From positions 2,308,501-2,372,500 of the forward strand of contig NZ_CP108455.1 of the NCBI RefSeq assembly GCF_036241575.1: 64,000 bases of DNA. Reading direction: 5' to 3'. The notes under the pieces are model-generated. The model had not been told where the DNA came from. It did no database searches and worked only from the letters and a program-made list of their open reading frames with translations. Both the position numbers and the translations under genes were made by a program. The DNA is from Streptomyces sp. NBC_01267. GTDB lineage: Bacteria; Actinomycetota; Actinomycetes; Streptomycetales; Streptomycetaceae. This document shows positions 1 to 17,247 of the stretch, in pieces (the stretch's first letter is position 1; each line of letters starts with the position of its first letter).

Positions 1-31
1 CCACGAATTGGCCGTTCTCTTCATCGAACAT
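1..31 (-). CDS. MbtH-like protein, N-terminal fragment cut by window edge
   Basis: Only the first ten codons are inside the window, reading MFDEENGQFV from an ATG at 29-31. That matches the usual beginning of MbtH-like proteins, small chaperones that bind and activate NRPS adenylation domains. A GGGA Shine-Dalgarno lies at 39-42, seven bases upstream of the start. The start overlaps the last 11 bases of the peptide synthetase gene, which fits translational coupling. The call rests on a very short stretch plus context; the rest of the gene lies beyond the left edge. Confidence 0.72.
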   Translation of the reverse strand, partial: MFDEENGQFV

Positions 32-3000
32 CGCGTGCTCCCAAGTTTTTCGAGGCTCCCGGTACGGGGCGTTTCTTCGCCTTTCTGGTCAGCCGACCAG
101 CGAGGGCTTCGACTGCGGGAAAGTCGAAGAGTTCCCGCACAGTAAGCTCGTATCCCATCTCCGACCGCACCCGAAGGACCAGCCTGGTGGCCAGGAGCGA
201 ATGCCCGCCAAGGTCGAAGAAGTCGTCGTCGACTCCCGCTTCGTCGATCCCGAGGACGTCGGCGAAGAGCCGGCAGAGCGCTTCTTCCTTGGTCCGCCGA
301 TCGGCCTGCCCGTCCGGCGCCGCGGGGACGTCCCGGGCCTCATCGCCGACGGCATCCCGGAGACTCGTCCCGGAGCCGACCCGCTCGAAGTGCCCGATGT
401 CGATGCTCCCGATCGGAAGCCGGGGGTCGCCCATCGCCCCCTCGACCATCCTGACCAGGCATTCGGCCAGGCATTCCACGGTTCGCCGGTCGAACAAGTC
501 CGTGGCGTACTCAATGCCGCAGTCCAGGCCGTACCGCGGACCCTCCGATACCGGCGGCTCGTCAACAGTGACCAGCAGATCGAACCGGGCGACGTCGAGG
601 CACCAGTCCAGAGCCGTGACGTCCAGGCCGGGCATCCGGATTTTCGCTACGGCGTTGTTCTGAAAGGCCAGTACGACCTGGCACAGCGGGTGACGAGCGA
701 GCGAGCGGGGCGGATTGAGCGCCTCGACCAGGTTCTCGAAGGGCAGATCCTCGTGCGCGAACGCGTTGAGATCGAATTCCCGGACCCGGGCGACCAGTTC
801 CAGGAACGTGGGGTCTCCCGACGTGTCGGTCCGCAGGACCAGCGTATTGACGAAGAACCCCACGAGGTCGTCCAACGAATCGTCGAACCGGCCGGCAACC
901 GGACTTCCGATCGGAATGTCGGTCCCGCTGCCCAACCTGCTGAGAAGAGCGGCGAGCGCGGCCTGCATCACCATGAACACGCTCACACCGGCGGACGCGG
1001 CGAATTCCGTCATCCGGCGGTGGAGTTCCGGGTCCAGCCGGAAGTCGACGACCTTCCCACGGAAGCTCGCGTGTGCCGGACGGGCGTAGTCGCACGGGAG
1101 ATCCAGTTGATCAGGGATTCCCGCCAACGCCGTTGTCCAGAAGTCCAGTTGCCGCGAGGACAGGCTGTCCGGGATGTCCGTCCCACCCAGCGCCTCCCGC
1201 TGCCACAGCGCGAAGTCCGCGTACTGGACGGGAAGGGGTTCCGGCGGAGCGACCGGGCCCCCGGTCCGTGCGGTGTACGCGCGGACAAGGTCCCGGGCGA
1301 GGGGAGCCATGGACCATCCGTCACAGGCGATGTGGTGCAGAACCAACAGCAGGACGTGTTCGTCCGGGGCTATTCGGAGGAGACATGCACGCAGCGGGGG
1401 CTCGGCCGAGACATCGAAGCGCCGATTCTCGAACTCGGCCTGGAGCCTCGGCACATCGGCCGGCACGCACTCGACGACATCGGCCTCGGGCGGCCAGGCC
1501 CCGTCCGTCGCGAGCACCCGCTGATACGGCTCCCCGCCGTTCTCCGGAAAGACCGTACGCAGGCTTTCGTGGCGGCTCACCACGTCACCGATGGCCGCCC
1601 ACAGAGCCGTGCGGTCGAGCGGCCCGCCGAGTCGCAGCGGGAACGGAATGTTGTACGTCGCGCCGGGGCCCTCGATCTGGTTGAGGAACCACATCCTGCG
1701 CTGGGCGAAAGACAGCGGTACGAGGTCCGGGCGGGCGACCGGAACCAGTTCACGACGTACGGCCGGCTCCTCACCGAGCTGGGCCACAAGGTCTTCGAGA
1801 ACCGGGTGGTCGAAGACGCTTCGCACGGTCAGTTCGCGGTGCAGCACCGTCCGCGCCCGGGACACCAGGCGCATGGCGAGCAAGGAGTTCCCGCCCAGCT
1901 CGAAGAAGTCGTTCCCCAGTGCCACGTCCGGCACTTCCAGGACCTCCGCGACCAGGCCGCACAGTGCCTTCTCGTCGGGGCTACGGGGAGCACGCCCCGT
2001 AGCGGTGGGCTGCAAGGCGGGGACGGGCAGCGCCTGCTTGTCCACCTTGCCGTTCGGCTTCATCGGCAGGGCGTCCAGCACCACGACGACGTGAGGCGTC
2101 ATGTAGTCCGGAAGCCAGTCGCCGGCGAACTCCCGCAGCTCGCGCTGCCAGTCGTCGGAGTCCGCCGCGCAGACCACATAGGCGACCAGGCGGTCCTGGT
2201 GAGCGAGCACGACCGCCTGGGCCACACCTGGGTGGGTGTGCAGGACCCCTTCGATCTCCCCCGGTTCGATCCTGCGCCCGCGGATCTTCAGCTGGTCGTC
2301 CTTGCGGCCAAGGATCACCAGCCGTCCGTCGGGCAACAGCCGGCCGAGATCACCGGTCCGGTACCGGACCCCCGCCGGGTGCTGGACGAAACGCCGCGCG
2401 GTCAGCGCGCGATCGCCCAGGTAGCCCTCGGCCAGCCCCGCGCCCCGGACGCAGACCTCCCCCGGCTCTCCCGCGGGTACCTCGTTGCCCTCGTCGTCCA
2501 GTACGAGGATCTCCGCGCCCGGGATCGCCCGCCCGACCGTGACATCGGCACCCGCAAGGAGTTCGGTGCCGGCGCACCATACGGCGGCTTCCGTCGGGCC
2601 GTAGGAGTTGTACAGGCGGGTGCCCGGTTGGAGCCGGTAGTGCTCGGCGACCAGCGGTGCCGGGCACTGTTCACCAGCGACCAGCATGACGACCGGGCCC
2701 GTCGAAGGTTCGGGCAGCCTACGCAGCGCGGTGAGGTAGTGCGACGGAGTCATCGAGGTGTGTGAGACCCGGGTCCGGCCGCCGAGCACGGCGTCGACTG
2801 CTCGCATCACACCGTCGAGGGACTCGGGTGCCAACTCCAGGGTGCCGCCCGACGCGAGGGTCCACCAGATGGTGCCGAGCGAGGCGTCGAAGGACAGGGG
2901 CCAGAGCATGAGGAAGCGGCGGACCGGGTCCTCGTAGTGTCGCAGCCTGGCCAGCGTGGTGCTGGTGATGGCCCGGTGGGAGACAACGACACCCTTCGGC

Positions 3001-3497
3001 TCGCCGGTGGACCCCGAGGTGAAGATGATGTACGCGACATCGGCGGGACAGGGGCGGGAGGCCGGGCGGACTCCGCTTCGCCGGGCAACGACCACCGGCA
3101 GGCGGAGTACGGTGACGCGTTCCAGCGGACGCAGCCCTTCCGGCGTACTCAGTACCGCGACGGCCGAGGTGCGCTCGGCGATCAGGCGTAGACGGTTCGG
3201 CGGGGACTGCGGGTCGACGGGAACGTACACGGCACCGGCCTTCAGCACCGCCAACTGGGCCACCAGGGCGGCGGCGCTGCGACCGAAGGAGCTAAGCACG
3301 GCCTGGCCGGGCTCGACGCCCCGCGCTATGAGGTCCGCGGCCAGCGCATTCGCCTCACCGTCCAGTTCCCCATACGTCAGCTCGGCGTCCTCGGCCGCGA
3401 CCGCGCAACGATCCGGGTGGAGATCCGCCCGGTACTCGAACATGGCGACCAGCGTTTGCTCGATATCGACTGACGGCGCTTCGGCACACAAGTACAC
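21..3497 (-). CDS. Non-ribosomal peptide synthetase, A-PCP-C-PCP
   Basis: The 1158-residue protein activates one amino acid and condenses it with a second carrier-bound unit. Adenylation domain: about residues 20-495, with core A3 SGSTGEPKG near 161-169 and lysine motif PNGKVDK near 481. First carrier: FFELGGNS with phosphopantetheine Ser538. Condensation domain: about 590-1010, with HHIACDG at 721-727. Second carrier: FFDLGGHS with Ser1100. There is no C domain before the A domain and no terminal thioesterase. The second carrier has no adenylation partner in cis, so it is probably loaded in trans, the free-standing Thr ligase being the obvious candidate. By eye the ten specificity residues read D-A-G-S-L-A-S-V-W-K, which I do not recognise. 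The GTG start has a weak Shine-Dalgarno, so a start a few codons later is possible. Confidence 0.95.
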   Translation of the reverse strand: MYLCAEAPSVDIEQTLVAMFEYRADLHPDRCAVAAEDAELTYGELDGEANALAADLIARGVEPGQAVLSSFGRSAAALVAQLAVLKAGAVYVPVDPQSPPNRLRLIAERTSAVAVLSTPEGLRPLERVTVLRLPVVVARRSGVRPASRPCPADVAYIIFTSGSTGEPKGVVVSHRAITSTTLARLRHYEDPVRRFLMLWPLSFDASLGTIWWTLASGGTLELAPESLDGVMRAVDAVLGGRTRVSHTSMTPSHYLTALRRLPEPSTGPVVMLVAGEQCPAPLVAEHYRLQPGTRLYNSYGPTEAAVWCAGTELLAGADVTVGRAIPGAEILVLDDEGNEVPAGEPGEVCVRGAGLAEGYLGDRALTARRFVQHPAGVRYRTGDLGRLLPDGRLVILGRKDDQLKIRGRRIEPGEIEGVLHTHPGVAQAVVLAHQDRLVAYVVCAADSDDWQRELREFAGDWLPDYMTPHVVVVLDALPMKPNGKVDKQALPVPALQPTATGRAPRSPDEKALCGLVAEVLEVPDVALGNDFFELGGNSLLAMRLVSRARTVLHRELTVRSVFDHPVLEDLVAQLGEEPAVRRELVPVARPDLVPLSFAQRRMWFLNQIEGPGATYNIPFPLRLGGPLDRTALWAAIGDVVSRHESLRTVFPENGGEPYQRVLATDGAWPPEADVVECVPADVPRLQAEFENRRFDVSAEPPLRACLLRIAPDEHVLLLVLHHIACDGWSMAPLARDLVRAYTARTGGPVAPPEPLPVQYADFALWQREALGGTDIPDSLSSRQLDFWTTALAGIPDQLDLPCDYARPAHASFRGKVVDFRLDPELHRRMTEFAASAGVSVFMVMQAALAALLSRLGSGTDIPIGSPVAGRFDDSLDDLVGFFVNTLVLRTDTSGDPTFLELVARVREFDLNAFAHEDLPFENLVEALNPPRSLARHPLCQVVLAFQNNAVAKIRMPGLDVTALDWCLDVARFDLLVTVDEPPVSEGPRYGLDCGIEYATDLFDRRTVECLAECLVRMVEGAMGDPRLPIGSIDIGHFERVGSGTSLRDAVGDEARDVPAAPDGQADRRTKEEALCRLFADVLGIDEAGVDDDFFDLGGHSLLATRLVLRVRSEMGYELTVRELFDFPAVEALAGRLTRKAKKRPVPGASKNLGARDVR

Positions 3498-3765
3498 AAT
3501 GGTTCACATCCATTTCTTCGCTGAGGCGCCGGACAGCAGATCGGGCGTGACTTAATTGCCGATGAAAGCCATTGATTGTTCTGGCTCCGGCTCAGTTAAG
3601 CGCTCGGTCGATCATGACTCCGAGAAGTGATTCGTGTCGAGCACATGGAGGGTTCATCATTCTGCAGACTCCGCTTCCGGTAACAGCCGGACCTCTCTCC
3701 TCGACGATCTCGCCCGGTAGATTCTGGGCGTATCGGGGAAGCCGATGCCGACGGGAGAATCACAT
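3498..3765. promoter_or_regulatory. Divergent promoter region between NRPS and Thr ligase
   Basis: This 268-base region separates the leftward synthetase gene from the rightward threonine ligase gene and should carry promoters for both. It is visibly less GC-rich than the flanking coding sequence. I see no convincing -35/-10 pair and no clear operator. The Shine-Dalgarno GGGAG at 3753-3757 belongs to the rightward gene. Confidence 0.4.
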
Positions 3766-5277
3766 ATGACAGAGCCGTCCACACTCCATGAGCGATTTCG
3801 TGAGGTCGCAACCAGATGGCCGGACCGGTGCGCCGTGTCCACGGGCACTGACGCAGTGACCTACGGCCGACTTCGCGAGCTCGCCGACGAACTGTCCGAC
3901 GCCCTGGCCGCGGAACTGAATGACGGTGAGGGCCTGGTCGCACTCAGGATCGGCCGGAGCGTGCGGGCTCCCGCAGCGGTCTTGGGCGTCCTGCAGTCCG
4001 GCCGCGGCTACGTTCCGGTCGACCCGGACTACCCGGCGGCCCGTCAGCAGCACATTCTTCGTGACTCGGGAAGCGCCCTGGTCGTCACCGACAACGGCGT
4101 CGACGACGACGAGGTCCCGGTCGCCTCGGTCGGCCCCTTCGTGATTGCCCGCAGGCCGGCAGACCCCGGGCGGTCCCAGGTGCCGTCCGGCACCGCCTAC
4201 GTCATCTACACGTCGGGATCCACCGGGACACCCAAGGGCTGCCTGGTCGGGCACGAGCACGTACTCGGGCTCTTCGACGCCGCCGGGAAGGTCTTCGACT
4301 TCGGCCCGGACGACGTCTGGACGGTCTTCCACAACTACAGCTTCGACTTCAGCGTCTGGGAACTGTGGGGCGCGCTGCTCCACGGCGGACGCGCCGTGAT
4401 GGTCGGCCCTGCGGTCGCGGGCGACCCCGCGGCGTTCAAGGAACTGCTCGCCGAGGAATCCGTCAGTGTCCTCAACCAGGTCCCGTCGGTCTTCGGGCTG
4501 CTGACCCAGGAACTCGAACTCGCGCCCGTGGAGCTGCCGCGGCTGCGTCATGTGATTTTCGGCGGTGAGGCGCTCCACGCGGACGACATCGGCCGCTGGA
4601 ACACGGTCGCGGCCGCCCCGCGGGCGAAGCTGACGAACATGTACGGGACCACGGAGACCACCGTGCATGTGACGTACTGCGAGCTGACCGAAGAACTGCT
4701 GGCCGAAGCGCCGGCGAGGACGACTCCCATCGGACACCCCCTGCCCCATCTCAAGGTAACGCTCGTCGACGACGGCGGTCTCCCCGTGCCCGACGGCGAA
4801 CCGGGCGAGATGTGGGTCAGCGGCGCCGGCGTGAGCCACGGGTATCTCAACCGTGACGCGTTGACCGCCGAGAAGTTCGTCGTCACCGAAGACGGCAGAA
4901 GGTGCTACCGCAGTGGCGATCAGGCGGTCCGAAGGCCCGACGGGAATCTCTATTACGTCGGCAGGAAGGACCAGCAGGTGAAACTACGCGGCTTCCGCAT
5001 CGAACTCGGCGAGGTCGAGGCAGCCCTGCGGGCTCTCCCCGGCATCGGCTCGGCCGCCTGCGGGGTGGAGGAGAACCGCCACGGGGACGGGGTTCTCATC
5101 GCCTACGTGGTGCCGACCGTGGGCGCACCCGCGAGCAGCAAGGACATACGTGACGCGCTGACAGCCTGCCTGCCGGCCCATATGCGGCCGCAGCGCATCA
5201 AGTACCTCACGGAACTCCCGATCACCCCGCACGGAAAGCTCGACCGCACGGCTCTGCGCACCGCCGTCACCGCCTGA
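3766..5277 (+). CDS. Free-standing NRPS adenylation protein, predicted L-threonine specific
   Basis: The 503-residue protein is a single adenylation domain with no fused carrier, so it should form threonyl-AMP and load a separate PCP. Core motifs are present: TSGSTGTPKG (A3), YGTTETT (A5), YRSGDQ (A7) and the lysine motif HGKLDR near the C-terminus. Aligning SFDFSVWE, LNQVPS, VIFGGEA and NMYGTTETTVH to the GrsA pocket positions gives D-F-W-N-I-G-M-V-H-K, the classical threonine code. The ATG at 3766 is preferred over 3745 because GGGAG sits eight bases upstream of it. It is the only cluster gene on this strand here. Likely targets are the second PCP of the synthetase or the separate small PCP. 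The specificity call is strong; the target is inference. Confidence 0.93.
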   Translation: MTEPSTLHERFREVATRWPDRCAVSTGTDAVTYGRLRELADELSDALAAELNDGEGLVALRIGRSVRAPAAVLGVLQSGRGYVPVDPDYPAARQQHILRDSGSALVVTDNGVDDDEVPVASVGPFVIARRPADPGRSQVPSGTAYVIYTSGSTGTPKGCLVGHEHVLGLFDAAGKVFDFGPDDVWTVFHNYSFDFSVWELWGALLHGGRAVMVGPAVAGDPAAFKELLAEESVSVLNQVPSVFGLLTQELELAPVELPRLRHVIFGGEALHADDIGRWNTVAAAPRAKLTNMYGTTETTVHVTYCELTEELLAEAPARTTPIGHPLPHLKVTLVDDGGLPVPDGEPGEMWVSGAGVSHGYLNRDALTAEKFVVTEDGRRCYRSGDQAVRRPDGNLYYVGRKDQQVKLRGFRIELGEVEAALRALPGIGSAACGVEENRHGDGVLIAYVVPTVGAPASSKDIRDALTACLPAHMRPQRIKYLTELPITPHGKLDRTALRTAVTA

Positions 5278-5285
5278 CGCGGTAC

Positions 5286-5313: not shown

Positions 5314-5316
5314 GCA

Positions 5317-6159
5317 TCAGGCCTGATCCTCGCGATGAAGCCGCTCGGCGGCGAACGCGAGTGAGAAGGGCAGGGACCGGTCCAGGAATCGCAGGTCGTG
5401 CCCTCCTTCGCGTTCGTGGTACTCGAAGTCGATACCCGATCCCTCGATCTTCAGCGCCATGTTCCGGTTCATGCCGATGATCCGCGCATAGTCCTGCGAC
5501 CCGACGTCGAAATACAGGGACAGATCCGGGCCGCCCGTATACGAATCCATCATCCTGAAGGGGTTGTACCGAAGCCGTACCGGGCTTCCCGGTGGCCCCC
5601 AGACCCGCTCGTGGGCCGCTGTCGAGGGAATGGCGGAATCTCGGTTCTGACGCATCTCGGAGTAGGGGTCACCCACTCTGAGTGGCGCTTCGAAAGCTCC
5701 GGCGTGACTGATTACCGTGGAGAACAGGCCCGGGTGCCTCAGGGCTTGCATCAGGGCCGTGGCACCTCCCATGGAGAATCCGCCGATGGCCCTGCGCCCC
5801 TTTCTCACATCCGCCCCTATATTCTCATCGGCGAAGGGCACCACCTCGCCGATGAGATAGTCCTCGTATCTCATGCCTCTATGGTCGTTGATGAACCACC
5901 GGCGGCCACTCTCCGGAATAACGACCATGAGATCCAGGCCCGCGAGGTGTTCGATCAGACGAGTGCGCTGCAGCCAGGTCAGCCTGGTTCCACCGAATCC
6001 GTGCAGCAGAAACAGCACGGGAAGCGCAGAATCCAAGGAATTTCGCCGTACGGGTCTGAGCACGCTGACCCGTTTGTCGCAGTCGAGCGCGCGGCTCGGC
6101 CATTCCCAGGTTTCCACCTCTTGCGACAGGAGCTGATATTTCTCTATGAGCCGGTACAC
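5317..6159 (-). CDS. Alpha/beta-hydrolase of the putative esterase (Ag85/EstD-like) family
   Basis: The roughly 280-residue protein shows LFLLHGFGG (oxyanion region), nucleophile elbow GFSMGG, and a late GGHDLRF carrying the likely catalytic His. This matches the PF00756 esterase/acyltransferase group. No signal peptide is seen, so it acts in the cytoplasm. It is the last gene of the pyrrole cassette, 13 bases after the prolyl ligase stop when the GTG at 6157-6159 is used. A longer reading from 6228 would overlap that gene by 56 bases and looks less likely. Because the visible synthetase lacks a thioesterase, this protein may release the peptide or transfer the pyrrole acyl group to a hydroxyl, as the hydrolase-fold CloN7 is thought to do. 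That role is inference. Confidence 0.8.
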   Translation of the reverse strand: MYRLIEKYQLLSQEVETWEWPSRALDCDKRVSVLRPVRRNSLDSALPVLFLLHGFGGTRLTWLQRTRLIEHLAGLDLMVVIPESGRRWFINDHRGMRYEDYLIGEVVPFADENIGADVRKGRRAIGGFSMGGATALMQALRHPGLFSTVISHAGAFEAPLRVGDPYSEMRQNRDSAIPSTAAHERVWGPPGSPVRLRYNPFRMMDSYTGGPDLSLYFDVGSQDYARIIGMNRNMALKIEGSGIDFEYHEREGGHDLRFLDRSLPFSLAFAAERLHREDQA

Positions 6160-6172: not shown

Positions 6173-7834
6173 CTATTTCCGGGCCGCCCCGGGGCCTGCC
6201 CGGCGCATGGTGATCCGGCTCTCCGCAAGAGCGGTCAGCGCCAGACGGTCGACTTTTCCGGTGGAGGTGTACTCCAGGGCCGGCAGGATCTCGATCAGTT
6301 CCGGGACCATGTAGGAGGGCAGTGATTCACGGCACTGGCGGCGCATGTCCCGCTCGTCCGTCACGACGCCGGACAGCGGGGTGACGAACGCCGCGAGGCG
6401 CGTATCGCCGGACGCCGAATCGCCGACGGCCACGCATACGGCCTGGTCGACCGCGGGCGAGGACTCCAGTGCCGCCTCGATCTCCCCCAGCTCGACACGG
6501 TAGCCCTTGATCTTGACCAGGCTGTCGTTGCGGCCGATGAAGACATACCGCCCGTCGCGGTCGCGGCGCACGATGTCACCGGTGCGATAGAAGCGTCCGT
6601 CGGTCTGATCGACGATCCGGCTCGCTGTCTTCGCGGGATCGTTCCAGTATCCACGCATGACCGATTCACCGGAGATACACAGCTCGCCGACCATTTCGCC
6701 GTTGCCGGGCAACCTGGTCCGGTCCTCCGCGAGCAGGATCGCTCCGGCATAGGGGCACGGCTGCCCGATGGGCGGGGCCGCACCGGCAGCCGCACCGAAA
6801 TCCTCGTCCTCGACACGGTGGAAGGTGCAGACGTTCGTCTCGGTCGGGCCGTAGAGGTTGTAGAGAGCGGCCCCCGTGGGCACCTTGTCCCGCAACGCTC
6901 TCAGATGGTGCGTGGAATACGCCTCACCGGCAAAGGACACGACCCTCAGCCGGGAGGCCGCGAGGAGTTCGGAATTCTTCGCCTCGACCATTCTTCGCAG
7001 CGCGCTCGGTACGGAGTACCACATCGAGATCTTCTCGTCGGCGACGAACTGGTTCAAGGCCGCGCCGAGGCCTTGCCAGCTCTCCGGCACCAGCGACACA
7101 CAAGCACCCGCCGCCACGGCCACGAAGACATCGAGGACGGACAGGTCGAAGTGGAGCGGGGCATGACTGGCCAGTACGTCCACGGACGTCACACCGAACT
7201 CGCGCCCCGCCCAGTCGACGAAGGCGCGGGCGTTGCCGTGCGACAGGGTCACGCCCTTGGGCGTGCCGGTCGAGCCCGACGTGTACAGGATGTAGGCCAC
7301 ATCATCGGGATCCGGCCCCGCGGCAGTGCGCGTTGTCCGCGTACCACGGGCGAGTGCGTCGGCCCAGGACACCACGGAGAGATCGTCCGGTGCCTGCGCC
7401 GGATCCCCGCCGACGACGAGAACGGAGAGCGAGGACAGCACCTCGGGCCTGGTCGCACGTAGCGTCTCGACTCTGTCCGTAGTCGTGATCAGCCACGTCA
7501 TACCGCAATCGGCGATGATGGTGGCCGCTCGCCGGACGGGCGCGGTCGGATCGATCGGCACATAGGCCCCGCCGCTCCGGAGCACCGCATGGATGGCGGC
7601 CACCGCTTCGATCGACTTGTTCAGCCAGATCCCCACACGCATGGTTCCGTCCTGGCCGCGACCGGCCAGGGTTCCCGCCACCAGATCGCTGATCTCGTCC
7701 AGTTCGGCATAGCTGATCTGCCGGTTTCTCTCTTTGACGGCGATCTTGCCGGGGTTGTCCCGCGCGGACTTCTCCAGATGGTCCACCAGGGTCCCGGCAG
7801 TTGTCGAAGGTGACCGCTCCACGAACTGATTCAC
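6173..7834 (-). CDS. L-prolyl-[peptidyl carrier protein] ligase (PltF/RedM type)
   Basis: A stand-alone adenylation protein of 553 residues that should activate L-proline and load the small PCP encoded upstream. Core motifs are TSGSTGTPKG, YGPTETN, YRTGD and TGKVDR. Pocket residues read from HFDLSVLD, YSVPS, SFAGEA and NLYGPTETNVC give D-L-L-Y-S-A-L-V-C-K. This differs at one position from the DLLYLALVCK signature I recall for proline ligases of pyrrole pathways such as pyoluteorin and prodiginine. The start overlaps the dehydrogenase stop by four bases, so the two are translationally coupled. Together with the dehydrogenase and PCP it makes pyrrole-2-carboxyl-S-PCP. The family call is firm and the proline specificity is well supported by the neighbours. 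Confidence 0.93.
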   Translation of the reverse strand: MNQFVERSPSTTAGTLVDHLEKSARDNPGKIAVKERNRQISYAELDEISDLVAGTLAGRGQDGTMRVGIWLNKSIEAVAAIHAVLRSGGAYVPIDPTAPVRRAATIIADCGMTWLITTTDRVETLRATRPEVLSSLSVLVVGGDPAQAPDDLSVVSWADALARGTRTTRTAAGPDPDDVAYILYTSGSTGTPKGVTLSHGNARAFVDWAGREFGVTSVDVLASHAPLHFDLSVLDVFVAVAAGACVSLVPESWQGLGAALNQFVADEKISMWYSVPSALRRMVEAKNSELLAASRLRVVSFAGEAYSTHHLRALRDKVPTGAALYNLYGPTETNVCTFHRVEDEDFGAAAGAAPPIGQPCPYAGAILLAEDRTRLPGNGEMVGELCISGESVMRGYWNDPAKTASRIVDQTDGRFYRTGDIVRRDRDGRYVFIGRNDSLVKIKGYRVELGEIEAALESSPAVDQAVCVAVGDSASGDTRLAAFVTPLSGVVTDERDMRRQCRESLPSYMVPELIEILPALEYTSTGKVDRLALTALAESRITMRRAGPGAARK

Positions 7835-8955
7835 CTCATTCCGAGCTTCGCCGCTATGACAGATCGCTGCATGTCCGAGGTCCCCGAGGAAATTCTGGTG
7901 CCGAGTGCGTCCCGGAGCCGCTCCTCGATCCCGGCTTCTTCCGTGTATCCGTAGCCGCCGAAGATCTGCATGGCGCCCTCGAACGTGGCCACTGCGGCCT
8001 CGCTGATGGCGAGCTTGACCATCTCCGGGTAGAAGGACTCTTCGTTGTCCGCCAGTTCCCAGGCGGCCCGGTAGGTGAGGTTACGAGCCGATTCCAGCCT
8101 GACCCGCAGGTCGACGATCCGGTTCGACACCGACTGGAAGGAAGCGATCCGGCGCCGGAACTGCCGTCGGGACAGGGATCGTTGTACACACTCTTCGAGC
8201 TGCGCCTCGACGGCACCCAGCAACGGAGCGAGCAGCAGGGTCCGCTCCCATGCCATCACCGAGGCGAAGATCTTCGACCCCTGCTTCTCGGCACCCAACC
8301 GCCGGCTCTCGTCCACGACGCAGTCATCGAGGACCACCTGCCCCCACGGGCACGATCGGAGTCCGGCCTTCTGGTACTCGGCCTCGACCTTCAGCCCGGG
8401 ATGATCGCGCTCCACCAGGAACGCCGTCACACCCGTGAACCCGAACTGCTGCCCGAGCGTCGCGTAGACGAGGAACACATCGGCCAGCGGCGCGTTCGTC
8501 ACGAATCTCTTGCGTCCCGACAGCCGGTACTTCGTCCCGTCCTTGACGGCGACGGCCTCCATCGCGAGCGCGTCGGAACCGGTCTCTGTCTCGGTGATGG
8601 CGTGCGCGCCGGTCAGCGTCCCGCTCGCCAGGCCGGGCAGGTACGTCGCTTTCTGCTGCGGCGTGCCGAACTTCACGATCGGGTGCTGCACGGCCCACAT
8701 GTGAGCGCCGGCCGAGACGAGCAGCCCGATGTCCCGGCAGCCGTATCCGAGCCCTTCGAGGGCAAAGGCACAGGTGAGCGCGGAATGGCCCAGACCGCCG
8801 TACTCGACAGGCACGGGCAGCGCCATGACCTGGTCGGCGGCGAGCGCCTGCCAGCTGGCGCCGCCCCCGCCCGACTGCCCGGGTGCAGGAGAACCGCCGT
8901 GCTCGCGGAGGCGGTTGTGCAGCGCGAGTTGCTCCGCGGACCACTCAAGATTCAC
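7831..8955 (-). CDS. L-prolyl-PCP dehydrogenase, acyl-CoA dehydrogenase family (PltE/RedW type)
   Basis: The 374-residue flavoprotein should oxidise carrier-bound prolyl to pyrrole-2-carboxyl by removing four electrons. Acyl-CoA dehydrogenase features include TETETGSDA in the central region and GGYGYTEEAG and RISSGTSDMQR near the C-terminus. The EGTSE motif that carries the base in many acyl-CoA dehydrogenases reads SGTSD here, which suggests the base lies elsewhere. The GTG at 8953-8955, preceded by AGGG and overlapping the TrpB-like stop by 11 bases, is chosen because the in-frame extension to 9048 lies inside the upstream gene and looks like noise. It sits directly before the prolyl ligase gene, the standard pairing in pyrrole cassettes. 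Confidence 0.93.
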   Translation of the reverse strand: MNLEWSAEQLALHNRLREHGGSPAPGQSGGGGASWQALAADQVMALPVPVEYGGLGHSALTCAFALEGLGYGCRDIGLLVSAGAHMWAVQHPIVKFGTPQQKATYLPGLASGTLTGAHAITETETGSDALAMEAVAVKDGTKYRLSGRKRFVTNAPLADVFLVYATLGQQFGFTGVTAFLVERDHPGLKVEAEYQKAGLRSCPWGQVVLDDCVVDESRRLGAEKQGSKIFASVMAWERTLLLAPLLGAVEAQLEECVQRSLSRRQFRRRIASFQSVSNRIVDLRVRLESARNLTYRAAWELADNEESFYPEMVKLAISEAAVATFEGAMQIFGGYGYTEEAGIEERLRDALGTRISSGTSDMQRSVIAAKLGMR

Positions 8956-10321
8956 GGCCGTGCCCTTGCTCGTCCCGCGCCCTGGTGAGCTTCTCGACGG
9001 CCTGGTCGACTTCACGCTCCGTCGCCGAGTCATCGCCGAGGAGGCCATTCATGTACTTCTCGTAGGCGCCGAGATCCATGAGCCCATGGCCGCTCAGATT
9101 GAAGAGGATCGTTTCCACCGAACCGCTCTCGCGGGCACGGACGGCCCGATCGATGGCGTGCTTGATGGCGTGGGCGGACTCCGGTGCCGGGATGATCTGT
9201 TCGGCGCGGGCGAACGTCACACCCGCCTCGAAGATCTCGTTCTGCGAGTAGGCGACGGCCTCGACCAGTTTCTCGTGGTACATCCAGCTGATCACGGGAG
9301 CGGCGCCGTGGTATCGCAGCCCTCCGGCGTGGATGGGCGACGGCATGAAGTCGTTCCCCAGCGTGTACATCTTCGACATCGGGGTGTTGCCGAGGGCGTC
9401 GTGGTGATCCCAGGTGTACACGCCCCGCGTCAGCTTCGGGCAGGACATCGGCTCGACCGCGACCAGCCGCGTCTTCCGGCCCGCCTCGACCGATGCGCGG
9501 TAGAAGGGGAACGCGAGGCCGGCGAAGTTGCTTCCGGCACCGATCGCCCCGATCACGGTGTCCGGAAATTCGCCCCTCTCCGCCATCTGGACGAGCGCTT
9601 CCTCACCGATGACCGTCTGGTGCAGCAGTACGTGGTTGTCACCGCTTCCGGCGGAGTAGCGGACGCCGTCCCCCTCGTTGGCGTACTCGTGCGCCTCGGA
9701 ACTGGCCACCGACAGGCTCCCCGGGCAGTCCGGGTCCTTCAGGAGGATGGTCCGCCCGGCCTCGGTATGGATGCTGGGGCTTGGGATGACCTTCGCGCCG
9801 TTGAGTTCCATCATCAATCGGCGGTAGGGCTTCTGCTCGTAACTGCACTTCACCATGTAGACGGTGCAGTCCATGTCGTAGGACTTGCAGGCCATCGCCA
9901 GCGCCGTGCCCCACTGCCCGGCGCCGGTCCCGGTCACCAGCTCGCGGACCCCGGCCTTCTTGTAGTAATAGGCCTGTGCGACAGCCGAGTTCAGCTTGTG
10001 ACTACCGGAAGGGCTGACCCCCTCGTACTTGTAGTAGATCTTGGCGGGGGTACCGAGCGCCTTCTCCAGTTTCCGGGCGCGTACCAGAGGCGTCGGCCGC
10101 CAACGCTCGTACTCCGCCCGCACTTCATCCGGAATCGCTATGAACGGCTCTTTGCTCACGCTCTGCCGGTAGATGGAGAGCGGGAGCTGCGGCTGAACTC
10201 CGTGCCGCCCCACCCTCTGGGCCGGCCTCCGCTCCTGCGGGACGTATCCCGCAAGATCGGCGATCACGTTGTACCAGTGCGTCGGAACTCCGCTCCGCGC
10301 TGTGTCTTCACTCACTGCCAC
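8945..10321 (-). CDS. TrpB2-like PLP enzyme lacking the catalytic glutamate
   Basis: The 458-residue protein aligns along its length with the long TrpB2 form of tryptophan synthase beta subunit. PLP-lysine is K109 in GSHKLNSA, the phosphate-binding loop reads GAGSN at 261-265, and SGHG lies near the C-terminus. TrpB2 proteins normally read VTETGAGQWG; here the segment is VTGTGAGQWG, so the glutamate that governs the beta-replacement chemistry is Gly131. No trpA is nearby. The gene sits inside the pyrrole cassette between the PCP and the dehydrogenase. I infer an altered PLP reaction supplying an unusual amino acid, perhaps from Ser or Thr, not tryptophan synthesis. The substrate is unknown. 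The family call is firm. Confidence 0.9.
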   Translation of the reverse strand: MAVSEDTARSGVPTHWYNVIADLAGYVPQERRPAQRVGRHGVQPQLPLSIYRQSVSKEPFIAIPDEVRAEYERWRPTPLVRARKLEKALGTPAKIYYKYEGVSPSGSHKLNSAVAQAYYYKKAGVRELVTGTGAGQWGTALAMACKSYDMDCTVYMVKCSYEQKPYRRLMMELNGAKVIPSPSIHTEAGRTILLKDPDCPGSLSVASSEAHEYANEGDGVRYSAGSGDNHVLLHQTVIGEEALVQMAERGEFPDTVIGAIGAGSNFAGLAFPFYRASVEAGRKTRLVAVEPMSCPKLTRGVYTWDHHDALGNTPMSKMYTLGNDFMPSPIHAGGLRYHGAAPVISWMYHEKLVEAVAYSQNEIFEAGVTFARAEQIIPAPESAHAIKHAIDRAVRARESGSVETILFNLSGHGLMDLGAYEKYMNGLLGDDSATEREVDQAVEKLTRARDEQGHGRES

Positions 10322-10367: not shown

Positions 10368-10625
10368 TCAGGCCGCCTGTGTGGTCACCAGCTGGACCAG
10401 ACTTCCCACGTCGACGAGGTCGACCTTCATGAGCGCTTCGTCGTTGATCTCACAGGAGAGATCGCTTTCGAGCCGGGTGATGAGTTCAAGGAGACTCAGC
10501 GAATCCAGGCCGATCGTGGCGGAGTACAAAGGGAGTTCATCCGCTATGTCCTCCGGAGACAGCTCAAGGTCGAGAATCTCGATGAGCCGGCGCCTGACCT
10601 GCATCGAAATTACGGAATCCGCCAC
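10368..10625 (-). CDS. Peptidyl carrier protein (PltL/RedO type)
   Basis: A stand-alone 85-residue acyl/peptidyl carrier with the phosphopantetheine site IGLDSLSLLEL, Ser in DSL. Its place beside a prolyl ligase and dehydrogenase identifies it as the likely carrier on which proline is oxidised to pyrrole-2-carboxylate. The GTG at 10623-10625 with GAGAGGG just upstream is preferred; an ATG at about 10601 is possible, while the open frame running further upstream is too long for a carrier. It is the first clear cassette gene, about 46 bases before the TrpB-like start. Confidence 0.88.
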   Translation of the reverse strand: MADSVISMQVRRRLIEILDLELSPEDIADELPLYSATIGLDSLSLLELITRLESDLSCEINDEALMKVDLVDVGSLVQLVTTQAA

Positions 10626-12376: not shown

Positions 12377-13462
12377 TCAGGCCACTTGGGCCCTGTCGGG
12401 CGGGAGTCCTCCCGCCGGCCGGCAATGCCCGTGGTGGGCGCCCCAACCGTGGTCGACAGCGGGATCCGGATACATTTCCCTGCCGCGACGAGCCCCTTCC
12501 TCCCGCGCGATGAGATATCCCAGGTGCGTGCGGTTCCGTGCGCCGAGTCGCCGCATGATCTTGGAAATATGGCTGCGGCACGTACGCTCACTGATCGCCA
12601 GCCGCCGTGCGATCGCCCCGTCCTTCTCCTCGGTCATCATCAATTTCATGATTGAATTCTGGATTTCAGACACGACCGAACCCTCGACGCGCGTCCGATA
12701 GGACGAGGTCATCGGCTGGGAGAAATTCCAGATCCCCTCGAATACGTCGACCAGGAACGCAACGACCGCAGCGTGCTTGATCATGATCACCCCGGCGTCT
12801 TCGGAATCGCCGGAAATGAAGGCGGTATGCCGGTCGAAGATCATCAGGCGTCGAGAGAGACAGTCCAAGGTCCTGACCTCGGCGCCGATCGCGGTCAGCG
12901 ATTCCACATGATTCTGAGTGTTCCCGCAGAATCGTGCGCTGTGCTGGTAGATCGTGCGCATGCTGACACCACGTTTGAGCATGGCACTGTCGCGAGGGTA
13001 GGCCTTTTCAAGGATCGCCCGGGGCCGCGAACCTCCGGGCTGGACCACCAGAACCTCGAATTTGCATTCGCCGGCCGCTTCCGCGATCCGCGTATCCACG
13101 GCATCAGGATCGACGATGGCGACGATCTGCCCGCCCTGCCCGTCGACAGACAGGGCTTCGTTGAATACTCGCAGACTCCGCAGGCTGGACTGGGTCCTGG
13201 ATACGTCGCGCACCACACGATCAAGGGATTCCAGCAGCCGACCGAAGATCTTTTCCTCTGCGACGTCCGCACTCACTGCGGTAATGAATTCCGGATTGGT
13301 CTCGGCGCAGGCGAAAAGACCGACATCGCGCAGCTGGTCGAGCGTGGCGACGGCAGCTTTCCGATCCGAGCCGAGCAGCGCGAGAACGTTCGGATGCGGT
13401 AGATCGCCGTCGGTGATGAGATGGCGGTAGGCGCGAATTGTTTCCGAATCTGACGTGTTAAT
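12377..13462 (-). CDS. LuxR-type transcriptional regulator with apparent ATT start
   Basis: The C-terminal LuxR helix-turn-helix is clear (AIARRLAISERTCRSHISKIMRRLGARN). The first conventional start, GTG at 13274-13276, would drop the N-terminal winged-helix segment. In-frame coding continues upstream with no stop to a TGA at 13469-13471, and that extra part matches the paralogue at 16087-17247: TLDQLRDVGLFACAETNP here, TLDSLEAISLLVPSTENP there. No ATG, GTG or TTG exists in the extension. An ATT at 13460-13462 lies nine bases after a GAGGGG Shine-Dalgarno at 13472-13477, so I take ATT as the start, giving 361 residues. A sequencing error or a small frameshift is the alternative. It probably controls the cluster. 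Confidence 0.75.
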   Translation of the reverse strand: MNTSDSETIRAYRHLITDGDLPHPNVLALLGSDRKAAVATLDQLRDVGLFACAETNPEFITAVSADVAEEKIFGRLLESLDRVVRDVSRTQSSLRSLRVFNEALSVDGQGGQIVAIVDPDAVDTRIAEAAGECKFEVLVVQPGGSRPRAILEKAYPRDSAMLKRGVSMRTIYQHSARFCGNTQNHVESLTAIGAEVRTLDCLSRRLMIFDRHTAFISGDSEDAGVIMIKHAAVVAFLVDVFEGIWNFSQPMTSSYRTRVEGSVVSEIQNSIMKLMMTEEKDGAIARRLAISERTCRSHISKIMRRLGARNRTHLGYLIAREEGARRGREMYPDPAVDHGWGAHHGHCRPAGGLPPDRAQVA

Positions 13463-13566
13463 GCTTGATCACCCCTCAGGTGCAGGCATTTCCGTAATTC
13501 TGCATTTCGCATCACAGGACGGTGCCGGTCGGCGATGTCTCCGCAGAAGGAGATTTTTGCGAGTGC

Positions 13567-14502
13567 TCAGGTCCTTACGGCGTTCAATTCGTCGAAGACC
13601 GACCGTAGAATCACCGAGACGTGGCGGGCGCTCCGCAGACCAGAACGCGGCAGCGGCTCGCCGGTGGCCAGCGCCCACGCCATCTCCTGGTAGACGGCAC
13701 GGCGCAACTGGGTGGTGGACGGGGTCGGGTGGTCCTCGATCAGACCGACGGCCCCGGTCATGACGGCGCCGTCGGCCACCAGGACGCGCCGGTCCGTACC
13801 CAGGACCTCCAAACGCTCGGACCTGACGGTGGTCTCGGCGGTGACCACGAAGCTGAGTACAGCACCCTCCCTGAACTCGACCAGGCCCGCGACCCGTGAG
13901 TCGATACCAGGTACGGACTCACGGATACCGCCCAGTCGCAGTTCCATCGGCTCACCGAGCAACTGGCATGCCAGGTCGAGGTAGTCCACGGCCAGATGCG
14001 CGGTGACACCGCCGAGCGACACAGCCGGGTCACGGCGCCAGCCCGCTCGCCGGTACTGCGCGCTGGGCCGGTACCTGGACACCTGGAGCACCCCGACAGC
14101 CCCCTTTCCCCAATCCCAGGCGAGCACGGACTCGGGGAGCCTGAGCCGTTCCTGGAGCATCACGCCGATCGGGCGGCCCAGTCGGCGGCCGAGCTCCACG
14201 ATCCGGTCGATCTCGGCAGGCGAGGAGGCCGGGGGCTTCTCCAGGAGCACCGCCTTCCCCGCGCGCACGGCCTCCTCCGCGAGGGCGGCCCGGTTCCCCG
14301 GAGGCACGCACAGGGCGACGAGATCCACCGACGGGTCGCCGAGCAGGCCGGCCCAGTCCGCCGAGCGGGGCAAACCGTCGGTGTCCATGGACGCGTCCCG
14401 TTCCAGGACGGTCGCGACGCGCGCGAACGGGACACCGTCCAGGGCCGCGGCATGCTGCCGTCCCGCCACGCCGAAACCGACGATGGCCACACCGAATGTC
14501 AT
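13567..14502 (-). CDS. Gfo/Idh/MocA family NAD(P)-dependent oxidoreductase
   Basis: The 311-residue protein has an N-terminal Rossmann dinucleotide motif, VGFGVAGRQH, and the family's EKPPA motif near residue 93, whose Lys takes part in catalysis. A central GGVTAHLAVDYLD segment resembles the catalytic His/Asp region. Members oxidise or reduce sugars, inositols, imines or biliverdin-type substrates. It is between the two regulators and co-oriented with the cluster, so a tailoring or precursor role is plausible but unproven. The ATG at 14500-14502 is taken; the longer in-frame extension upstream belongs to the cysN remnant. Confidence 0.85.
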   Translation of the reverse strand: MTFGVAIVGFGVAGRQHAAALDGVPFARVATVLERDASMDTDGLPRSADWAGLLGDPSVDLVALCVPPGNRAALAEEAVRAGKAVLLEKPPASSPAEIDRIVELGRRLGRPIGVMLQERLRLPESVLAWDWGKGAVGVLQVSRYRPSAQYRRAGWRRDPAVSLGGVTAHLAVDYLDLACQLLGEPMELRLGGIRESVPGIDSRVAGLVEFREGAVLSFVVTAETTVRSERLEVLGTDRRVLVADGAVMTGAVGLIEDHPTPSTTQLRRAVYQEMAWALATGEPLPRSGLRSARHVSVILRSVFDELNAVRT

Positions 14503-14545
14503 GCGTACCTACTTCACTTGTTTGCTTCACGGTGATACCCGCAGG

Positions 14546-14840: not shown

Positions 14841-15259
14841 CCCGCGGGCCGTTCGTGAACAGTGACGTTTCCGGGGTGGCGTCGCACTCTTGCGCCACCG
14901 TGCCCAGCGCGGCGAGCCGGTCGCCGGAATTCGTCCGGCAGCGGCGCCCCTCACACCTGCGGCCCTCCATGCCGGCCTGACTTCATCCGGTCATCGTCGC
15001 GGGTGGCGCGACGTCCAGCCGTACGGCTCCTGACAACTTCCGCAACGATCAGAGCACAAGACACCGGTCTGCCACTTCCCGTAGGACATGGACGGCCCCA
15101 TCCTCAAGTGCCCCGGCGCGGCCGGTAGTTGATGCACGGCGGCGGGTGAACGGGTCTTGGGCAGTTCGGCGATCGCGGTGGCCGTCACGCCGGTCCCTTC
15201 CTCCGGAGGCGGCGTTCCGCCGCTCGGTGGGCGGCCGAGGCCGAGAGGGACGAGTGCGG

Positions 15260-15451: not shown

Positions 15452-16086
15452 GACTGTTCCCCCGGCGAATTGATCGGATGTGAACTGGCGGGAAGTTGCT
15501 CCCGCCTCGTTGCTTCACCATCGTTTCTCCACCAGGGCCCCAGAACCAGGCTTTCGGGATGCGGCCATCAGCCATGACGGGTAGTGGCCAGAGCGGCCTC
15601 CATCTCACATCCTGAGATTGCGGGGAGGGTCCTGGATGGTGTTCGACCCGGAGGCATCCGACCTCACGGCTCACCGACTCGCCTGCCGCAGCCGGACCGG
15701 CCGAAAGCACTCGCCGCGGTCAGGTCGACGCGGACCGAAAGCACTCACCGCGGTCAGGTCGACGCGGGCCGAAGTACGGTCGCAGGTCCGGGAGCCGGCG
15801 GGGGTGAGAAGTCCGGCCGTCGTCACTGGCTCCGCTTCACCGCCCGTTGGCCCCGGACGCATGTGATCACCCGCGCGATCCAGCCACTCACAGCCCTGCG
15901 GAACCGTGGCTGACCAGCAACCCCGACCGTCCCGACAAGCCACAGCAACATCCCGGAGCCATGGAACCCCGGCGCCCACCCGACGCGACAGCCGGGCCGC
16001 CGCCGTGCCCAGGCCCACGAATTTCCGCACCTCGCAAGCACAGAGCCCCCGCCGGCGACCCGACGAGGGCTCATGAACGATCGGGG
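15452..16086. other. 635-base stretch without a supported gene
   Basis: The open frames here on both strands have poor codon character and no family match. The only distinct structure is the short tandem repeat at 15701-15775. The stretch may hold the promoter of the small secreted protein at its left end and the terminator of the LuxR gene at its right end; I see no clear hairpin for the latter. Confidence 0.5.
15701..15775. repeat. 34-bp tandem repeat, about 2.2 copies
   Basis: Units begin at 15701, 15735 and 15769 with CCGAAAGCACTC, CCGAAAGCACTC and a partial CCGAAG. The two full copies differ at very few positions. It lies in non-coding DNA at the edge of the cluster. Confidence 0.8.
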
Positions 16087-17247
16087 CTAACTCTCCGCAG
16101 TCCACGGTGTCGACGACGAAGGCGGGGCGGTCAGGGTGTCCTGGGTGTCCAGAAGGCCGAGGTCGGCAACCTTCAACGCGGCCTGGAAACGGGTCCCCAC
16201 GCCCAGCCGGTCGAGGAACGCGGAAATCGTACGGCTCAGCGTGCGTGCCGAGACGCCCAGTTGCCGTGCGATGCTCTCGTCCTTCATGCCCGCGGCAAGC
16301 ATGCGGATGATGAGTTGCTCCTGGACGGTGATCTCGATCTCCGAGTGCGGGTTCTGCGAGCGCGAGTTCTGCGAGCGCTGTTCCAACGGAGCGGCGTTGT
16401 GCCAGCAGAAGTCGAAGAGCGCCTGAAGTGAGCGGACCAGTTCGATGCCCCGGATGGCGAAAGCGCCCTGCGAACTGTCCTGCGGGTCGATGGGCAGGAG
16501 CGCAAGACTGACATCGAAGAGCAGCATGCGCAGCGGCAGATGGGCGGCCAGTCGGATTTCCATTCCGAGCTGAGAGGCCGATTCCAGATACTCCCCCATA
16601 TAAGGCACTTCAGCGATGTGCTGGGCATAGAGCGTGCGGACCTTAATTCCCCTGCTCATCACTTCCGAGTCGCGCAGCAGCATGTCATCCATGAGTTCCA
16701 CGGGAGGAATTCCGCCGGGATGCATGGTGCACTCACGGGATTTCACGAGGCTCACCGCATCATCCAGGAACGCATTGACTTGACTGACGCTGCGCAGCGT
16801 TTCGATCTCGACGACGTCGCGCCCGTCCGAGCGCAGATTCATAAAGTCACCCATGATGGCCCTGATGGAATCACGAGTGCGCGCCAGTTGCTCCTGATGC
16901 CGGGAGACCTGCCGTTCCTCAGCCGCGAAAAGCCGAGAAAGCGCCGCATCGGGATCAATCGCAACATATCCACCGGGATTCTCAGTCGACGGAACAAGCA
17001 GACTGATTGCCTCCAGACTGTCGAGCGTCGACTCCACTTCCGCCGCGGAAATCCCTGCGGCTTCCGCCAGATCCTCCGCCAGCCACGACGGATTCTCATG
17101 TACCAGCCGATAGAGGACCTGCGCCAGTGGGCGATCCGAAGACCCTCCCGTGCCCGCCCTACTGCGAAACGACACTTCCACCCCAGCCTTCAGCCCTGCA
17201 GTCGAACTCGCTTGCTGCGCGCAGGGAGCCAGATCACGTCTCTTCAC
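16087..17247 (-). CDS. LuxR-type transcriptional regulator with N-terminal winged helix
   Basis: The 386-residue protein has an N-terminal winged-helix-like segment (LAEDLAEAAGISAAEVESTL near residues 57-76), a central sensing region of the phospholipase-D/TrmB-like type, and a C-terminal LuxR helix-turn-helix, MKDESIARQLGVSARTLSRT near 325. It is a paralogue of the regulator at 12377-13462. Such regulators often sit at cluster borders in streptomycetes. Transcription is leftward, toward the cluster. The ligand or signal is unknown. Local GC content is a little lower than the rest of the window. Confidence 0.85.
   Translation of the reverse strand: MKRRDLAPCAQQASSTAGLKAGVEVSFRSRAGTGGSSDRPLAQVLYRLVHENPSWLAEDLAEAAGISAAEVESTLDSLEAISLLVPSTENPGGYVAIDPDAALSRLFAAEERQVSRHQEQLARTRDSIRAIMGDFMNLRSDGRDVVEIETLRSVSQVNAFLDDAVSLVKSRECTMHPGGIPPVELMDDMLLRDSEVMSRGIKVRTLYAQHIAEVPYMGEYLESASQLGMEIRLAAHLPLRMLLFDVSLALLPIDPQDSSQGAFAIRGIELVRSLQALFDFCWHNAAPLEQRSQNSRSQNPHSEIEITVQEQLIIRMLAAGMKDESIARQLGVSARTLSRTISAFLDRLGVGTRFQAALKVADLGLLDTQDTLTAPPSSSTPWTAES

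What the first reader, a model, noticed from the sequence alone, without database searches (positions are those of the whole stretch)
1..17247. Pyrrole-threonine peptide cluster with unusual gene set
A complete pyrrole-2-carboxyl-PCP cassette (ligase pocket D-L-L-Y-S-A-L-V-C-K, dehydrogenase, PCP) sits with a free-standing Thr ligase (pocket D-F-W-N-I-G-M-V-H-K), an A-PCP-C-PCP synthetase whose last carrier needs loading in trans, and a TrpB2-like enzyme. I know no described cluster with exactly this set, though I cannot search. A plausible route loads Thr on the second synthetase carrier, condenses it with residue X, and attaches the pyrrole acyl group by another enzyme.
Basis: partly seen in the sequence, partly recalled or inferred. 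Interest (0 to 1): 0.8.

Follow-up and report, generated by a model that had tools for sequence, protein, structure and literature searches.

The report
Pyrrole-building peptide cluster with altered TrpB
A Streptomyces gene cluster for a small modified peptide carries a travelling five-gene set that seems to build a pyrrole ring on a carrier protein and then, with a tryptophan-synthase relative that has lost its key catalytic residue, turn it into an unusual amino acid.

Summary
About 13.5 kb more lies left: MbtH, a second synthetase (C-A-PCP-C-A-MT-PCP), thioesterase, methyltransferase, SDR, carbamoyltransferase, ArgB-like kinase. All 18 genes compared are conserved in a second species (77-96%). 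The assembly line has four A domains, four carriers and three C domains: a tetrapeptide, with no C domain for a pyrrole cap.

The striking part is the TrpB2-like enzyme. It has Gly where tryptophan synthases have a catalytic Glu; 118 of its 120 best listed relatives have Gly or Ala. In 23 of 23 Gly-type loci read, a stand-alone carrier gene lies directly upstream; in 0 of 42 Glu/Asp-type loci. PCP-TrpB-dehydrogenase-A(Pro)-esterase recurs as a unit in six further genomes.

I propose that the five genes make a pyrrole-bearing alanine-type amino acid: pyrrole is formed on the PCP, TrpB joins it to a Ser-derived aminoacrylate, and the esterase releases it for NRPS1's first A domain. Neither chemistry nor product has been shown. 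Library searches showed no described counterpart; MIBiG could not be searched.

The parts
1..31 (-). 5' end of MbtH-like gene (66 aa; G000:C1:2308331-2308531), running out of the window
   Evidence: Pfam MbtH 61.7 bits; overlaps the end of NRPS1
21..3497 (-). NRPS1, A-PCP-C-PCP, 1158 aa; A1 pocket D-A-G-S-L-A-S-V-W, unassigned; last PCP has no A domain
   Evidence: 88% identical in G243
3745..5277 (+). free-standing A domain, pocket D-F-W-N-I-G-M-V-H (Thr; assignment recalled)
   Evidence: TIGR01733 391.5 bits, cut-off 317.4
5317..6159 (-). alpha/beta hydrolase (PF00756 esterase), likely releases the carrier-bound product; start inferred, ORF extends to 6228
   Evidence: Pfam 78.9 bits; solved relatives include tributyrin and ferulic acid esterases; follows A(Pro) in six further genomes
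6173..7834 (-). free-standing A domain, pocket D-L-L-Y-S-A-L-V-C (L-Pro; assignment recalled)
7831..8955 (-). prolyl-PCP dehydrogenase (ACAD fold); start inferred, ORF extends to 9048
   Evidence: below the NCBIfam equivalog cut-offs of RedW and PigA
8945..10321 (-). TrpB2-like PLP enzyme with Gly131 in place of the catalytic Glu (VTGTGAGQWG); PLP-lysine motif GSHKLN kept
10368..10625 (-). stand-alone carrier protein (GLDSL), directly upstream of TrpB2-like gene; start inferred, ORF extends to 10811
   Evidence: PP-binding 30.8 bits
11052..12278 (-). MFS transporter, probable export
   Evidence: Pfam MFS_1 62.2 bits; 92% in G243
12377..13276 (-). LuxR-type regulator
   Evidence: GerE 39.1 bits; conserved
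13567..14502 (-). GFO/IDH/MocA-type oxidoreductase, role unknown
   Evidence: Pfam 62.3 bits; conserved
16087..17247 (-). LuxR/HTH-type regulator, right-hand end of the conserved block
   Evidence: GerE 31.8 bits; synteny ends near 17622

Best explanation
The window holds the right-hand part of an NRPS cluster for a four-residue, N-methylated and probably O-carbamoylated peptide. Five genes (PCP, TrpB2-like, dehydrogenase, A(Pro), esterase) form a movable module for one building block. Proposed route: A(Pro) loads L-Pro on the PCP; the dehydrogenase oxidises it to pyrrole-2-carbonyl-S-PCP; the Glu-less TrpB2-like enzyme makes an aminoacrylate from Ser (or Thr, or phosphoserine) and joins it to the carrier-bound (or just released) pyrrole, giving a pyrrolyl-alanine-type amino acid; the esterase frees it; NRPS1 A1 then activates it as residue 1. 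Thr, loaded in trans on NRPS1's second PCP, is residue 2. NRPS2 adds two more residues (the second in a module with a methyltransferase) and the separate thioesterase releases the peptide. Shown: gene content, operon order, loss of the Glu, carrier adjacency, recurrence of the module. Inferred: every reaction, the attachment position on the ring, whether the carboxyl is kept, and which A domain uses the product.
For: (1) Accounting: 4 A, 4 NRPS PCPs and 3 C domains leave no C domain for a cap. (2) All five module genes lie in the same order in G249, G270, G299, G363, G829 and G776. (3) 30 of 80 listed esterases on contigs of 5 kb or more share an exact contig length with a listed TrpB relative. 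(4) Gly replaces the Glu seen in solved TrpB2 enzymes; 107 Gly + 11 Ala of the 120 best listed relatives; one change on an 83-row tree, 100/96. (5) Carrier gene immediately upstream in 19/19 Gly-type against 0/41 Glu/Asp-type loci, then 4/4 and 0/1 in later loci; PF00550 passed in 10 of 10 carriers tested of those 19. (6) Another Gly-type locus lies beside pabB, aminotransferase IV, isochorismatase-family, AMP-ligase and carrier genes, suggesting a carrier-bound aryl acid. [quoted passage not shown] (8) Outside the focal species and G243, A1's closest relative found, 61% over 374 aa, is the A gene beside the same module in G776; pockets DAGSLASVW and DAGAVAEVW.
Against: No reaction or product is known. 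In the other module family (G270, G363) the NRPS begins with a C domain that could take pyrrolyl-PCP as a cap. The A1-like gene in G776 ends before the C-terminal segment, so it may be broken or special. Among the 120 listed of 1326 NRPS1 hits, only the focal species and S. camelliae exceed 46% identity. The dehydrogenase is below both equivalog cut-offs and may stop at a pyrroline, as recalled for AnaB. A1 and the NRPS2 A pockets have no secure assignment; one NRPS2 residue reads D by eye and W by MAFFT. Three Glu-type clusters also have a carrier-like gene further off, so carriers are not exclusive to the Gly type.
Confidence: 0.5

Rival explanations
1. Pyrrole-2-carbonyl is an acyl cap. The PF00756 protein (or a C domain acting twice) moves it from the PCP to an amine or hydroxyl of the peptide, and the TrpB-like enzyme makes some other residue.
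For: Pyrrolyl-PCP cassettes often serve acyl transfer (recalled). The esterase ORF lies directly after A(Pro). The other module family has an N-terminal C domain on its NRPS. Cmt1 (a mycolyltransferase, recalled) is a distant relative of the esterase.
Against: No free C domain in the focal line. TrpB lies inside the pyrrole operon, between PCP and dehydrogenase, and this order recurs in six further genomes.
Confidence: 0.22
2. The dehydrogenase stops at a pyrroline (dihydro) stage, and the TrpB-like enzyme joins this enamine-like ring to an aminoacrylate, giving a dehydroproline-derived bicyclic or branched amino acid.
For: The best solved relative is prolyl-ACP dehydrogenase 4irn; that AnaB stops at dihydro is recalled. 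The RedW and PigA equivalog cut-offs are not reached.
Against: RedW/PigA models still give 338-368 bits, and 5zw0-type prolyl-PCP dehydrogenases match at 261 bits against 283 for 4irn.
Confidence: 0.12
3. The TrpB-like enzyme does Ser/Thr beta-elimination or adds a nitrogen nucleophile to make a 2,3-diamino-type residue. Its place beside the PCP is due to coupled expression only.
For: A review says that removing this Glu takes away a side chain essential for native reactivity (PMC12135140 passage). PALP-fold enzymes do such reactions (family knowledge).
Against: A carrier gene directly upstream in 23 of 23 Gly-type loci from several pathway types suggests a carrier-bound partner.
Confidence: 0.1
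4. The TrpB-like gene only supplies tryptophan or protects the producer, and the cluster is otherwise an ordinary pyrrole-capped peptide cluster.
For: Duplicate Trp genes occur in some peptide clusters (recalled).
Against: The genome has a normal TrpB with ETGAGQHG elsewhere. The cluster copy lacks the Glu, as do 118 of its 120 best listed relatives.
Confidence: 0.05

Closest known systems
Pyrrole-2-carboxyl-PCP cassettes (prodigiosin RedW and PigA models; RedM/RedO, pyoluteorin PltF/L/E and clorobiocin CloN3-5 recalled)
   Same: Stand-alone Pro-type A domain, prolyl-PCP-type dehydrogenase and stand-alone PCP
   Different: Here the three are interleaved with a TrpB2-like gene and an esterase in one operon, and feed an NRPS with no free C domain for a cap
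TrpB2 (tryptophan synthase beta chain 2; solved 4qys, 6hte, 6hul)
   Same: Nearly whole-length homology, PLP-lysine motif; NF009057 and TIGR01415 cut-offs passed
   Different: Catalytic Glu is Gly; further shared changes (S54, A262, Y319); carrier gene upstream
Engineered TrpB E105G / TmTyrS tyrosine synthases
   Same: Absence of the same Glu in Tm9D8 E105G; use of arenes other than indole (PMC12909874 passages; 8egy listed)
   Different: Laboratory variants using free phenols/naphthols; the natural enzymes sit with carrier proteins
Streptomyces camelliae cluster (G243; name inferred from the equal contig length 9,319,598)
   Same: All 18 genes compared are in synteny, 77-96% amino-acid identity
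   Different: No product seen; the same cluster, not an independent precedent

Membership tests
Pyrrole-2-carboxyl-PCP cassette | free-standing L-Pro A domain | tested here: met
   DLLYSALVC; prolyl-carrier ligases 6o6e and 7thn among solved matches. Met by sequence; substrate not assayed.
Pyrrole-2-carboxyl-PCP cassette | prolyl-PCP dehydrogenase | tested here: met
   Best solved matches 4irn, 6cxt, 5zw0; but below equivalog cut-offs NF045652 (338 of 650) and NF053553 (368 of 500)
Pyrrole-2-carboxyl-PCP cassette | stand-alone PCP | tested here: met
   PF00550 30.8 bits, cut-off 20.8
Pyrrole-2-carboxyl-PCP cassette | four-electron oxidation to pyrrole | not testable with these tools
   needs an assay
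Tryptophan synthase beta chain (TrpB2) | sequence family and PLP lysine | tested here: met
   NF009057 635.5/366, TIGR01415 557.7/518.85; GSHKLN visible in the sequence
Tryptophan synthase beta chain (TrpB2) | catalytic Glu before the TGAGQ motif | tested here: not met
   G in VTGTGAGQWG against E in 6hul, 4qys, 6hte; so not filed as a tryptophan synthase
NRPS assembly line | C domains with HHxxxDG; carriers with PP-binding; A domains | tested here: met
NRPS assembly line | trans loading of NRPS1's second PCP by the Thr A domain | not testable with these tools
   inferred from the missing A domain
Carbamoyltransferase (TobZ/NodU type) | Carbam_trans N and C domains | tested here: met
   PF02543 242.8 and PF16861 157 bits; NodU equivalog cut-off not reached, 693.6 of 1000

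The most novel reading that the evidence does not exclude
A natural subfamily of TrpB-like enzymes has lost the tryptophan-synthase Glu and acts on arenes tethered to a dedicated carrier protein, appending a serine-derived alanine unit by C-C (or N-C) bond formation. The module here does this to PCP-bound pyrrole, and relatives do it to other carrier-bound aryl acids, so this would be a general carrier-dependent route to aryl-alanine building blocks.
Probability: 0.42. Interest if true: 0.85.

Novelty: new variant of a known kind. Interest (0 to 1): 0.64.

Why it matters
If right, nature has used the same active-site change that engineers use to widen TrpB, and has coupled it to carrier proteins. 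That would give new enzymes for non-canonical aromatic amino acids and a sequence handle (TGTGAGQWG beside a carrier gene) for finding new peptide families. Each step can be tested with soluble proteins and mass spectrometry.

Tried and rejected
Considered and dropped. (a) Pyrrole cap through a C domain: no C domain is free. (b) TrpB as precursor supply or self-protection: Glu lost, normal TrpB elsewhere. (c) The class II tRNA synthetase at 23799-25505 as a Thr- or Pro-tRNA synthetase resistance gene: it is a glycine--tRNA ligase (665.1 bits, cut-off 312) beside ZnuA/ABC genes, outside the conserved block. (d) The ArgB-like kinase (219.9 bits, cut-off 151.3) as proof of an ornithine- or hydroxynorvaline-type residue: left open. 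(e) A carrier HMM built from NRPS-embedded PCPs only was too narrow (among 19 Gly-type loci E under 0.001 in L064, L066 and L067 only), so I used stand-alone seeds with leave-one-family-out controls (7/7, 4/4 and 8/8 Gly-type loci recovered; of 41 Glu/Asp-type loci one weak hit, L056 at E=0.2). (f) Plasmid search with NRPS1: 2744 records, all under 60% identity. (g) Paper searches for TrpB with carriers and pyrrole, pyrrolylalanine and this gene set: judged from the listings, none of the few papers returned describes such a cluster. MIBiG is not available. Structure prediction was not used.

Weak points. Several Gly-type loci are near-copies (L029, L060, L061; L063, L065, L068, L103). The carrier HMM used seeds from some of the same loci. 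One further TrpB (L115, Ala-type) starts at a contig edge, so its upstream side cannot be tested. The tree used 58 loci and 25 of the 120 listed proteins, chosen by me; L030 and L060 were left out; the long branch P0158 is unsure; the root is a midpoint, so the direction of the change rests on the Glu in solved enzymes. In one search P0158 was left out. A small ORF at 14647-14970 (107 aa, no Pfam match) lies in the block and was not compared. My gene caller missed or misplaced several genes (AK and GFO in G243; dehydrogenase or esterase in L025-L028 and L106); tblastn corrected this. Nine other Gly-type contexts (L089-L096, L100) do not show the Pro ligase, dehydrogenase and esterase of the module. 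The carriers of L097-L099 were judged by eye, not by Pfam.
Full report
WHAT IS THERE. The window is G000:C1:2308501-2372500 of an 8.07 Mb genome.

THE CLUSTER CONTINUES TO THE LEFT. The fetched left flank (L014) holds, on the minus strand: MbtH (66 aa), NRPS2 (2539 aa), a thioesterase, a methyltransferase, an SDR, a NodU/TobZ-type carbamoyltransferase and an ArgB-like kinase. NRPS2 reads C-A-PCP-C-A-MT-PCP. The 18 genes compared, from the kinase to the LuxR-type gene ending at window 17247, all have a counterpart in the same order in genome G243 at 77-96% amino-acid identity, with TrpB2 highest at 96%. DNA synteny runs from about -13.55 kb to +17.6 kb in window coordinates, with gaps right of 14.7 kb. 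G243's contig length equals that given for Streptomyces camelliae proteins, so that name is an inference. In 392 genomes of the same genus the esterase passed 1e-20 in 7; 3 of these (own, same species, G243) have 87% identity or more.

DOMAIN ACCOUNTING. NRPS1 has one A, two PCPs and one C; NRPS2 has two A, two PCPs and two C; one Thr-type A stands free. That is four substrates, four carriers and three condensations: exactly a tetrapeptide. No C domain is left over for a pyrrole cap. The C domains carry HHxxxDG.

THE FIVE-GENE MODULE. PCP, TrpB2-like, dehydrogenase, A(Pro) and esterase are adjacent or overlapping on the minus strand. The same five genes lie in the same order in G249, G270, G299, G363 and G829 (TrpB 58-61%, dehydrogenase 55-58%, A(Pro) 47-50%, esterase 47-51%, PCP 35-44%). 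These belong to a different, longer type of NRPS cluster. In the two of these scanned with Pfam (G270, G363), TauD and enoyl-CoA-hydratase-like genes follow. A closer copy lies in G776, a genome of another family (TrpB 78%, dehydrogenase 64%, A(Pro) 59%, esterase 57%, PCP 54%), directly downstream of an A gene 61% identical to NRPS1's A1 over 374 residues. That A gene stops before its C-terminal segment, so it may be broken. Among 12 genomes searched with A1, only G243 (91%) and G776 (61%) passed 1e-110. Of 80 listed esterases on contigs of 5 kb or more, 30 share an exact contig length with a listed TrpB relative, including proteins named from Actinomadura, Amycolatopsis and Catenulispora. Nine other Gly-type TrpB contexts (L089-L096, L100) belong to other pathways and do not show the module's ligase, dehydrogenase and esterase.

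THE TRPB-LIKE ENZYME. Solved TrpB2 enzymes read VTETGAGQWG (6hul) or TTETGAGQWG (4qys, 6hte) at the catalytic Glu (Salmonella numbering E109, recalled); the cluster enzyme reads VTGTGAGQWG and keeps the PLP-lysine motif GSHKLN. Of the 120 best listed of 8000 scored relatives, 107 have Gly, 11 Ala, 1 Glu (P0158) and 1 did not match the motif pattern (P0139). In 60 loci from my own searches 19 are Gly-type and 41 Glu- or Asp-type, the latter including this genome's normal TrpB. On an 83-row tree the Gly/Ala state needs one change, at a branch with 100/96 support. Further positions separate the groups (S54, A262, Y319).

CARRIER ADJACENCY. In 19 of 19 Gly-type loci a stand-alone carrier gene lies immediately upstream on the same strand; in 41 Glu/Asp-type loci none is found within 1.5 kb. 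Leaving out whole families of seeds still recovers 7/7, 4/4 and 8/8; one Glu-type locus gives a weak E=0.2. Ten of the 19 carriers were sent to Pfam and all ten pass the PP-binding cut-off. Later loci agree: 4 of 4 Gly-type (L101-L104) have it, the one Glu-type (L114) does not, and one Ala-type (L115) starts at a contig edge and cannot be judged. Three Glu-type clusters (L097-L099) do have a carrier-like gene two to three genes away (by eye), with an ectoine-synthase-like cupin checked in one of them, so carriers are not exclusive to Gly-type clusters at longer range. The Gly-type loci belong to several pathway types. In one (Streptomyces angustmyceticus, H21; motif TTGTGAGQWG) carrier, TrpB, flavoprotein and AMP-ligase sit beside pabB, DAHP synthase, aminotransferase class IV and isochorismatase-family genes. 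My reading is that a shikimate-derived aryl acid rides on that carrier.

MECHANISM. Engineered TrpB lacking this Glu (Tm9D8 E105G, listed with TmTyrS6) is used for phenol/naphthol to give tyrosine derivatives (PMC12909874, passages), and a review says that E104G removes a side chain essential for native reactivity (PMC12135140, passages). I therefore propose that the cluster enzyme joins carrier-bound or newly released pyrrole to an aminoacrylate, making a pyrrolyl-alanine-type residue that A1 (pocket DAGSLASVW) selects. Attachment point, fate of the carboxyl and timing are open. The esterase as hydrolase is inferred from its family; acyl transfer is the main rival.

EVIDENCE THAT DOES NOT FIT NEATLY. 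In G270 and G363 the NRPS beside the module begins with a C domain, which could receive a pyrrole cap. Its first pocket, DAPILAGVC, resembles A1's only loosely. Apart from S. camelliae (91%), the 120 listed of 1326 NRPS1 hits do not exceed 46% identity. The dehydrogenase is below both equivalog cut-offs.

VERDICT. Observation confirmed; interpretation partly supported and improved. The cluster itself is a new NRPS cluster of a known kind. The interesting point is the carrier-linked, Glu-less TrpB subfamily. No paper on such a pairing turned up in the listings of eight library searches, but the library lacks most subscription journals, and MIBiG was not searchable.

Noticed in passing
L014:11761-19380 (left of window; NRPS2): A 0.77-kb stretch is shared by NRPS2's two A domains at 91% DNA identity within this genome and 90% within G243, but 83-85% between non-equivalent copies of the two species: a sign of gene conversion between the modules.
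   Followed up: partly
L107/L026 (G270), L108/L027 (G363): The module also sits beside long NRPS genes with pockets such as DLTKMGHVG and DILQLGMIW (Asp- and Gly-like codes, recalled) and a TauD gene, reminiscent of acidic calcium-dependent lipopeptides.
   Followed up: partly
L110 (NZ_CP104318.1 397398-422726): Streptomyces angustmyceticus plasmid cluster: LysE, carrier, Gly-type TrpB, flavoprotein and AMP-ligase next to pabB, DAHP synthase, aminotransferase IV, isochorismatase family and asnB: possibly an amino-acid product from an aryl acid.
   Followed up: partly
L097, L098, L099: A Glu-type TrpB2 lies in another small set with an A domain, a carrier-like gene (by eye) and a prolyl-DH-like ACAD (40-43%) in all three; an ectoine-synthase-like cupin was checked in L097 and an ATP-grasp protein in L098.
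   Followed up: no
L111 (NZ_CP109002.1 41050-74366): Distant Gly-type TrpB (45%) in a cluster with two ACADs, a type III PLP enzyme, three annotated carriers, a PPTase and a glutamate--tRNA-ligase-family protein.
   Followed up: no
L115 (G776:C96:73-1380): A second, Ala-type TrpB-like gene (52%) in the same genome that holds the closest module copy; it starts at a contig edge.
   Followed up: no
window 23799-27263: A glycine--tRNA ligase gene next to ZnuA and ABC transporter genes; looks like an ordinary zinc-related neighbourhood, outside the cluster.
   Followed up: partly
window 18318-19871: ParBc_2 putative ParB-like nuclease protein (152.9 bits) right of the cluster, role unknown.
   Followed up: no
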